A stretch of 54,633 nt of DNA from positions 1 to 54,633 of the forward strand of contig LADN01000011.1 of assembly GCA_000961585.1 (NCBI GenBank). The letters run 5' to 3'. Numbering within the stretch: the stretch's first letter is position 1; the number at the start of each line of letters is the position of its first letter. The notes under the pieces are model-generated. The model made no database searches, was not told the origin of the DNA, and saw only the letters and a list, made by a program, of their open reading frames with translations. Made by a program: the position numbers and the translations under genes. Source of the stretch: Peptococcaceae bacterium BRH_c4a. GTDB lineage: Bacteria > Bacillota > Desulfotomaculia > Desulfotomaculales > Desulfocucumaceae. Positions 36,410 to 38,249 of this stretch are shown here, in pieces.

Positions 36410-36517
36410 ACGGCCAGACCCCTTCGGGTTAAATATGAGGGATCAGTGTATCACGGAAGGCACGTGGAAATTAAAGAAGGAAAATATTCTTCACTACTGC
36501 CAATTATAAAAAGTTCT
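36410..36517 (+). pseudogene. 5' fragment of a RAYT/IS200-like (Y1) transposase gene
   Basis: Reading from 36413, the frame gives ARPLRVKYEGSVYHGRHVEI. This closely resembles the N-terminus of RAYT/Y1 transposases (ARPLR-E-PGAVYHV), including the first His of the family. The expected ATG is ACG (36410-36412). The fragment ends after about 35 codons where the palindromic element begins. The catalytic HUH and Tyr regions are absent, so it is dead. Confidence 0.6.
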
Positions 36518-36705
36518 AGGAGGCTGTTGAAAAAGTCCATCTGCGGCGTTGCGGCGGCGGCTTCAATGCTCAACGTACAAGGAGTACGCCTCCGCTTGAA
36601 GCCTTGCCGCGCCTTGCATCTGGAGCTTTTTGAACAGCCTCCGGTTGTAGTCGAATAAGTACTTTGTTGACCTCTTAATATAGTTTTGCAACACTCTCCT
36701 AGAAC
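36513..36705. repeat. 193-bp palindromic element with 10-bp perfect terminal inverted repeats
   Basis: The ends are GTTCTAGGAG (36513-36522) and CTCCTAGAAC (36696-36705). The interior holds a second strong palindrome from GGAGGCTGTTGAAAAAGTCC (36519) to CTTTTTGAACAGCCTCC (36642). I recall similar GGAGGCTGTT..AACAGCCTCC sequences from many anaerobe genomes, where they behave like small non-autonomous elements. No transposase is encoded. The 66-codon minus-strand ORF across it is not considered a gene. Confidence 0.6.
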
Positions 36706-36734: not shown

Positions 36735-36960
36735 CTTGTTTTTCCGCTCGTTTTTCCGACCACAGAACGACCTGAGCGACCCCAGGTAAACTTAGGGAAA
36801 GCGTTTAGCGCTTTAGTGGTTTAATGCATTAAGGCCCTGTATCAGCGAAGCTTAAATGGGGGGCAATCGTCAGACAATTCTACTTTTCATCAGAAAAGAT
36901 ATAGCCTTCAGACAAAGGTTTTAGCCTTGTTTCTAACGGCTATGTTAACAAGTTTTGCAC
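36735..36960. other. Intergenic stretch with degraded repeat flank
   Basis: GACCTGAGCGACCCCAGG and the following GCGCTTTAGTGGTTTAATGC resemble the right flank of the hairpin-repeat family. On the minus strand ATAGCC..GGCTAT followed by ATCTTTTC (about 36898-36945) could terminate the CopZ-like gene. I see no coding sequence. Confidence 0.4.
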
Positions 36961-37431
36961 TTACAGTGATGGTTTTTCTTTCATCTCCTGGGCCTTGGCA
37001 ATCACCGATTGCACAGCAGGTCTACATCAGGTGCCAGCGGGATTTTTTGTAAGACATTCCTTGCCGGTGTTTGCCCCAGTGTGGTCCTGAATATCTTTAA
37101 TGTCTCTTCAACAACCACGGATGGCGATATGCTCAATAATGTCAGCCTCCGTAACGCCTTTACAGTAGCATATAGGGACAAATTGGTCGTTCTCTTTGAA
37201 CCATATCTTAACCTTAATATCGTCTTTATAAAATACCTGCTGACCGAAATATGCAACGTCACAGGCTTTTGAAAGGCATAGGGAAAAACTTTCTAGTGAG
37301 TTTGGAAGAAGGTCATCATTTAGCATATTCTTTAATGTTTCGGCTTTAACCATTTTACCCAACTCATGGCAATTAGGACAGGGGTATGTATCCGAATTTA
37401 GATGGTTTGAACCGCAAACTACAGTTGACAT
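36961..37431 (-). CDS. CopZ-N/BFD-like [2Fe-2S] protein with two in-frame TGA codons (candidate selenoprotein)
   Basis: Before the first TGA are 107 codons with YPCPNCHELGK, a CDVAYFGQQVFYKDD block and PICYCKGVTEADI. This resembles the zinc/[2Fe-2S] N-terminal domain of archaeal CopZ (zf_CopZ plus BFD-like). The same frame continues past TGA at 37108-37110 and TGA at 37027-37029 to TAA at 36961-36963, adding family-like sequence (HTGANTGKECLTKNPAGT, then CRPAVQSV), 156 residues in all. Both TGAs sit at Cys positions (RGC-TGA; NPAGT-TGA-C where homologues have CC). A hairpin GCAATC-GGT-GATTGC begins 14 bases after the second TGA, with its G-rich loop 20 bases downstream, as in a bacterial SECIS. 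A pseudogene is the alternative. Confidence 0.65.
36998..37012 (-). promoter_or_regulatory. Candidate bacterial SECIS hairpin
   Basis: On the minus strand a perfect 6-bp stem GCAATC/GATTGC has the loop GGT, which starts 20 bases after the TGA at 37027-37029. Bacterial SECIS elements usually lie within the coding region, with the loop about 16-37 bases after the UGA and a G at the start of the loop. No comparable hairpin was found after the first TGA. Confidence 0.45.
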
Positions 37432-37496
37432 ATGGAAACTGCGCTCCTCTCCTTGATGGGTAGTACAAAGAAGATACCAGATGCAAATTACTTATA

Positions 37497-37709
37497 TTAT
37501 TTATAGATCCCACTGCGGTAATCAATAGCCTGTATGTATATAACCTTTTAACCATGCTGGATCTCAAAAATTATGCGGTAAGTGCCAATCCGAAGGCGAT
37601 ATAAACCCTGGTATCCTTTTATGGGTTTAATGTCGCCATGCGGATGAATTGCAATAAGGCCCTTTAACCCTTGTGCAATTCTCTCTTGTACACCTTTTTC
37701 TCGGAACGC
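37497..37709 (-). pseudogene. Degraded RelE/ParE-type toxin gene
   Basis: The minus-strand frame between a TGA (37710-37712) and TAA (37497-37499) encodes VQERIAQGLKGLIAIHPHGD, then IKGYQGLYRLRIGTYRIIFE. This is the core of a RelE/ParE-family mRNA interferase-like toxin. It is interrupted by TAA at 37548-37550 and then continues with KVIYIQAIDYRSGIYK, the usual toxin C-terminus. The first 20 or so residues are missing and no start codon is available. It overlaps the end of the small antitoxin-like gene, so the pair is a dead toxin-antitoxin remnant. Confidence 0.75.
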
Positions 37710-37804
37710 TCAATCAAATACTGGAGGAAATCAAAAACTGTTTTTTGATCATGCTCCTGCAGACGCTCAACCAAAATATGAATCTCCTCTTTGCGCACCA
37801 CCAT
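37664..37804 (-). CDS. Small antitoxin-like protein (partner of the broken RelE toxin)
   Basis: From ATG 37804 the 46-residue protein reads MVVRKEEIHILVERLQEHDQ then KTVFDFLQYLIERSEKK. This is a charged helical sequence like the small antitoxins encoded upstream of RelE/ParE toxins. No ribosome site is obvious. It is short for an antitoxin, and its C-terminus overlaps the truncated toxin, consistent with a deletion across the junction. It begins just inside the end of ytfJ, whose stop is at 37812. Confidence 0.5.
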   Translation of the reverse strand: MVVRKEEIHILVERLQEHDQKTVFDFLQYLIERSEKKVYKRELHKG

Positions 37805-37811
37805 GTTGAGT

Positions 37812-38249
37812 TCATTCGATGATAGTAGCCGGCCTGGCGGCTGTAGTGACCCTGCTCCGGGTCTCCTTCCTGCTGAATATGTCCTGTAGCTGGGACAGAA
37901 GCTGAGGGGCCATGTCAATAATCCTGTCGGCAATGACGTTATTGTCTACCGGAAGCAGTCTGACACTGCCGTTTCCCACCACCAGGAAGCCTACGGGCTG
38001 CACCGAAACGCCGCCTCCGCTGCCTCCGCCAAAAAAGGGAGACTGTTCCGGATCGTTTTTCCCTTCGCCTCCGGAGGTTTCAAATTCGCCTCCCCCTGCC
38101 GCAAATCCGCAGGATACCCGGGATATTGGTATAATCACAGTTCCGTCGGGCGACTCCACGGGATCACCCACTACGGTGTTCACATCAATCATTTCCTTGA
38201 TGTTTTCCATGGCTGTTTTCATTAAGCCTTCTATTGGGTGTCCGGACAT
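37812..38249 (-). CDS. ytfJ: GerW/YtfJ family sporulation protein
   Basis: The 145-residue protein has the YtfJ features MIDVNTVVGDPVESPDGTVI near residue 19, IPISRVSCGFAAGGGEF near residue 40, a glycine-rich FFGGGSGGGVSVQPVGFLVV segment and VRLLPVDN. In Bacillus YtfJ (GerW) is a forespore protein needed for germination. It starts within the end of the DUF2953 gene (65-base overlap), the usual arrangement for this pair. Confidence 0.93.
   Translation of the reverse strand: MSGHPIEGLMKTAMENIKEMIDVNTVVGDPVESPDGTVIIPISRVSCGFAAGGGEFETSGGEGKNDPEQSPFFGGGSGGGVSVQPVGFLVVGNGSVRLLPVDNNVIADRIIDMAPQLLSQLQDIFSRKETRSRVTTAARPATIIE

What the first reader, a model, noticed from the sequence alone, without database searches (positions are those of the whole stretch)
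36961..37431. Candidate selenoprotein: CopZ-N/BFD-like Fe-S protein with two TGA codons at cysteine positions
The minus-strand frame crosses two TGA codons (37108-37110 and 37027-37029) and continues with convincing family sequence to a TAA. Both TGAs lie where cysteine is expected: RGC-TGA, and NPAGT-TGA-C where related CopZ/BFD domains have CC. Random decay would rarely give two stops that are both TGA and both one base from a Cys codon. A GCAATC-GGT-GATTGC hairpin follows the second TGA at SECIS distance. Other genes here use TGA as stop, so the recoding would be local. A [2Fe-2S]/zinc protein with two Sec residues would be unusual, and I am not aware of a described selenoprotein of this family.
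Basis: partly seen in the sequence, partly recalled or inferred. Interest (0 to 1): 0.9.

Follow-up and report, generated by a model that had tools for sequence, protein, structure and literature searches.

The report
CopZ-like selenoprotein with extra stop codon
This is a gene for an already catalogued bacterial selenoprotein (an iron-sulphur/zinc protein related to copper chaperones); one of its two internal TGA codons clearly encodes selenocysteine, while the other is found in this genome alone and is more likely a stop mutation or sequence error than a second selenocysteine.

Summary
In detail: minus-strand frame 37431-36961 crosses two TGAs (codons 108 and 135) and matches the CopZ N-terminal zinc/[2Fe-2S] fold. 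The second TGA is a real Sec codon. All 43 homologues collected with this motif have TGA there, and the hairpin behind it has frozen synonymous codons across genera. The genome has selA, selB, selC and selD. But this is a published family: CopZ-type (2Fe-2S) selenoprotein "form 1", motif GxUC. The first TGA is different: 42 of 43 homologues, including a 91%-identical sister, have TGC/TGT there. No dedicated SECIS is seen; the hairpin behind it is equally strong or stronger in 11 of 42 relatives with Cys, and stronger in the sister. Damaged copies are common in the order (at least five other genomes), and the toxin-antitoxin remnant just upstream carries a deletion and a nonsense codon. Best reading: a form-1 selenoprotein gene with one genuine Sec (U135) plus a lineage-specific premature TGA at the otherwise invariant Cys108 (mutation or sequence error). 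A true two-Sec variant is not excluded; I give it about 17%.

The parts
36961..37431 (-). Reading frame of a CopZ-N-type Zn/[2Fe-2S] selenoprotein, form 1 (GxUC), 156 aa if both TGAs are read through
37108..37431 (-). Part translated if TGA108 acts as a stop (107 aa: whole zinc domain, CYC, C107)
37108..37110 (-). TGA codon 108; TGC/TGT (Cys) in 42 of 42 other form-1 homologues; likely premature stop or sequence error
37027..37029 (-). TGA codon 135 = selenocysteine; TGA in 43 of 43 form-1 homologues
36998..37012 (-). bSECIS apical hairpin GCAATC-GGT-GATTGC, loop 20 nt after TGA135
37064..37079 (-). Weak hairpin CTGG-GGCAAACA-CCGG 32 nt after TGA108; same structure in Cys108 relatives, so not a dedicated SECIS
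37459..37833 (-). Remnant of a ParE-type toxin-antitoxin pair just upstream (approximate limits), broken by a deletion (about 0.2 kb missing relative to the sister) and an in-frame TAA

Best explanation
A gene of the known CopZ-type (2Fe-2S) selenoprotein form 1. UGA135 is decoded as Sec by SelA/SelB/SelC/SelD using the hairpin 20 nt downstream. In the protein, by alignment to A. fulgidus CopZ, C88, C90, C126 and C136 would hold a [2Fe-2S] cluster, C18, C21, C52 and C57 the zinc, and Sec135 sits next to the cluster ligand C136; the form-1-specific vicinal pair C107-C108 would be its thiol partner, so the protein probably does Sec/thiol redox or soft-metal (Cu-like) handling (inferred). In this genome only, Cys108 has become TGA by one base change. 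Having no SECIS of its own it most likely stops translation at 107 residues, leaving the zinc domain and half the cluster site: a recent inactivating mutation, or an error in a draft assembly.
For: TGA135 in 43/43 form-1 homologues; over the hairpin codons V140 GTG 42/43, Q141 CAA 40/42, S142 TCG 43/43, V143 GTG 41/42, I144 ATT 42/43, while other invariant residues use all their codons; helix kept in 99.3% of cells, 2 pairs with double changes. selA, selB, selC (anticodon TCA), selD present. Codon 108 is TGC/TGT in 42 others and TGC in the 91%-identical sister. Hairpin after codon 108: -6.2 kcal/mol, matched or beaten in 11/42 Cys108 relatives, -8.5 in the sister; codons 117-124 not frozen. 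Five other genomes of the order carry damaged copies (G082 TAG; G014, G024, G029, G055 remnants). Upstream toxin-antitoxin remnant damaged in the window but not in the sister. Fold: 2HU9, TM 0.72/0.85.
Against: The frame after codon 108 is intact to the TAA; codons 109-153 show no amino-acid change from the sister, and the window branch has no excess of replacements (6 syn, 5 nonsyn against 5 and 5 on the sister branch), so no decay shows beyond the TGA. The change is at an invariant Cys and to TGA, as a second Sec would need. The weak hairpin meets the loop (G first), stem (4 bp) and spacing (32 nt) rules of the published bSECIS model, though its local energy (-6.2) misses -7.5; a fold of the whole 60 nt from TGA108, which adds a long-range outer helix, reaches -11.2.
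Confidence: 0.78

Rival explanations
1. A genuine two-Sec protein: both UGA108 and UGA135 are read as Sec, so that the C107-C108 / U135-C136 site becomes C-U / U-C and could form a diselenide.
For: C108 is invariant with Sec135 and absent (mostly Ala) in most forms lacking Sec135, so the sites are functionally linked; C to U is one base; downstream frame intact; Sec machinery present; a hairpin with GG in the loop lies 32 nt downstream.
Against: 0 of 42 other form-1 homologues have TGA at 108; the hairpin is no better than in Cys108 relatives and stronger in the sister; codons there are not frozen; the family SECIS model gives no hit at this TGA, E up to 10, though SECIS elements differ between genes; damaged copies are common.
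Confidence: 0.17
2. Neither TGA is decoded: the whole gene is a pseudogene with two stops from decay.
For: Two in-frame TGAs and a broken neighbour.
Against: TGA135 is in all 43 form-1 homologues with a frozen SECIS and the genome has the Sec machinery.
Confidence: 0.02

Closest known systems
(2Fe-2S)-binding protein, copper chaperone CopZ family, form 1 selenoprotein (cd10141, GxUC, one Sec; review PMC13188914, also PMC9312934)
   Same: GT-U-C motif, CopZ zinc + BFD-like domains, one conserved Sec with SECIS
   Different: A second in-frame TGA at the otherwise invariant Cys108
Csac_0668 family 2Fe-2S cluster-binding (seleno)protein, form 2 (NF045877)
   Same: Best NCBIfam hit, same fold (E 4e-32)
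   Different: 111 bits against a cut-off of 190; in the close matches here (L043, L046, L075, L076) the single TGA lies near the N-terminus, and the BFD site is CC
CopZ N-terminal domain of Archaeoglobus fulgidus (PDB 2HU9)
   Same: Fold and Cys pattern CYC...C...CC
   Different: No Sec, no C107-C108 pair, 31% identity

Membership tests
CopZ-type (2Fe-2S) selenoprotein form 1 | GxUC with in-frame TGA at the first Cys of the BFD CC | tested here: met
   GTUC at 133-136, TGA in 43/43
CopZ-type (2Fe-2S) selenoprotein form 1 | bSECIS 16-37 nt after the Sec codon, G in first two loop bases, MFE <= -7.5 | tested here: met
   20 nt, loop GGT, -8.6 (apical part) to -11.0
CopZ-type (2Fe-2S) selenoprotein form 1 | Zinc domain and BFD-like [2Fe-2S] domain | tested here: met
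   zf_CopZ above cut-off; BFD 24.5 of 26 bits; structural match to 2HU9 over both domains. Cluster and zinc themselves not testable
CopZ-type (2Fe-2S) selenoprotein form 1 | Sec-decoding genes in the genome | tested here: met
CopZ-type (2Fe-2S) selenoprotein form 1 | Exactly one Sec codon in an otherwise open frame | tested here: not met
   a second TGA at 108; so either a disrupted member or a two-Sec variant
NF045877 Csac_0668 family (form 2) | Score above curated cut-off | tested here: not met
   111.4 against 190
Two-Sec variant | TGA at codon 108 shared by another homologue, or its own SECIS | tested here: not met
   0 of 42 share it; no distinctive SECIS
Two-Sec variant | Sec present at residue 108 in the protein | not testable with these tools
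   needs proteomics or a reporter

The most novel reading that the evidence does not exclude
A CopZ-N-type protein with Sec at both 108 and 135: a newly gained second Sec facing an old one beside a [2Fe-2S] cluster, using a hairpin that already existed in the coding sequence as its SECIS.
Probability: 0.17. Interest if true: 0.65.

Novelty: new member of a known kind. Interest (0 to 1): 0.32.

Why it matters
It adds a clear comparative SECIS (frozen synonymous codons across genera) for a selenoprotein family of unknown function, and an invariant C107-C108 pair that accompanies the Sec, which points to its chemical partner. If the second TGA were also Sec, it would be a caught-in-the-act Cys-to-Sec change between close relatives.

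Tried and rejected
Chance origin of both TGAs (rejected: TGA135 is shared by all form-1 homologues). TGA108 as the 'CU' site of form 2 (rejected: in the form-2 matches with a TGA it lies near the N-terminus). A first hairpin scan limited to about 30 nt gave -2.8 for TGA108; widened to the published 16-37 nt it gave -6.2, so the wider scan is the one used. Accelerated evolution on the window branch as a sign of decay (not seen). Searching metagenome contigs for further strains was not possible (cap 0); one sister was found in genome contigs. The structure model gives no coordinates here, so distances between C107/C108 and U135 were not measured. A first DNA alignment of the hairpin had wrong offsets and was replaced.

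Full report
Observation. The frame at 37431-36961 (-) reads 156 residues with TGA at codons 108 and 135 and a TAA end. It scores as zf_CopZ plus BFD-like [2Fe-2S], its only solved relative by sequence is the A. fulgidus CopZ N-terminal domain 2HU9, and an AlphaFold model made from an alignment of 34 sequences (mean pLDDT 89; both TGAs modelled as Cys) matches 2HU9 with TM 0.72/0.85.

Known family. NCBIfam's best hit is NF045877, a '(seleno)protein' family, below its cut-off. A 2026 review lists two CopZ-type (2Fe-2S) selenoproteins, form 1 with GxUC and form 2 with CU, one Sec each. The window's GTUC is form 1. So the claim of an undescribed selenoprotein family does not hold.

TGA135 is selenocysteine. 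I gathered 87 distinct homologous sequences; 43 carry TGA at the GxUC position. In these the codons over the hairpin are almost invariant (V140 GTG 42/43, S142 TCG 43/43, V143 GTG 41/42, I144 ATT 42/43), while equally invariant residues outside it, such as A120, G123, P131 and G133, use all codons. The helix has pairs that change on both sides. Loop distance, loop G and energy meet the published bSECIS rules. selA and selB lie side by side on contig C9, selC has a TCA anticodon, and there are two selD genes, each with one in-frame TGA of its own. Generic hairpin stability alone would not have shown this: 14% of random TGAs in the window have as good a hairpin; the comparative evidence does.

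TGA108 is the open point. Codon 108 is TGC or TGT in all 42 other form-1 homologues. C107 and C108 are invariant in form 1 and absent from nearly all forms without Sec135, so the residue matters. The nearest relative, a Desulfotomaculum MAG (L072, same sequence as L054 of G049), is 91% identical in protein and has TGC there. The hairpin downstream (CTGG-GGCAAACA-CCGG, 32 nt, -6.2 kcal/mol) is encoded by the TGANTGK stretch; 11 of 42 Cys108 relatives have one as good, and the sister's is stronger (-8.5). Codons 117-124 are not frozen. The family SECIS model hits only TGA135 convincingly in the window.

Why a premature stop is preferred. Damaged form-1 copies occur in at least five other genomes of the order: G082 (TAG at the Q115 codon), G014, G024, G029 and G055 (remnants). 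In the window itself the ParE-type toxin-antitoxin pair just upstream, intact in L072, has lost about 0.2 kb across the antitoxin-toxin junction and carries GAA to TAA in the toxin remnant. Cys to TGA makes up 11 of 68 single-base nonsense paths. Against this, the downstream frame is intact and no excess of replacements is seen on the window branch, so the event is recent, tolerated, or an error in the assembly. The genome has a single copy of the gene.

How it probably works (inferred). By alignment to 2HU9, C88, C90, C126 and C136 are the cluster ligands and C18, C21, C52, C57 the zinc ligands; the assignment of ligands in 2HU9 is from my own knowledge of CopZ. Sec135 is then the non-ligand residue beside the cluster, with C107-C108 as its likely partner. 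A role in redox or soft-metal handling, as for CopZ, is the most economical guess.

Verdict. One real Sec in a known family, plus an extra TGA that is probably not Sec. Two-Sec variant: about 17%.

Noticed in passing
window 36513-36705: A roughly 190-bp element with 22-nt terminal inverted repeats, present in about 33 nearly identical copies in this genome and in many copies in relative G006: a recently active MITE-like element about 255 bp downstream of the gene.
   Followed up: partly
L021 (G000:C85:102163-102255): tRNA-Cys (GCA) about 95 nt long that passes the Rfam tRNA-Sec cut-off, beside a gene that by eye looks like a YedE-type transporter (not searched); it resembles the selC*-type tRNA-Cys described in PMC7609411.
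   Followed up: partly
L038 and L039 (G000:C97 and C78): Two selD genes in one genome, each with one in-frame TGA.
   Followed up: no
window 37694-37804 and 36830-37701 against G049:C91: The toxin-antitoxin plus selenoprotein segment is 89-94% identical to a genome assigned to another family, while the best same-family match over the selenoprotein gene is 74%: possible horizontal transfer or mis-binning.
   Followed up: partly
L018 (G029:C33:164714-164791): A 26-residue C-terminal remnant of this gene keeps TGA135 and its hairpin sequence and has another TGA upstream near the Cys126 position, so extra TGAs also turn up in a plainly broken copy.
   Followed up: partly
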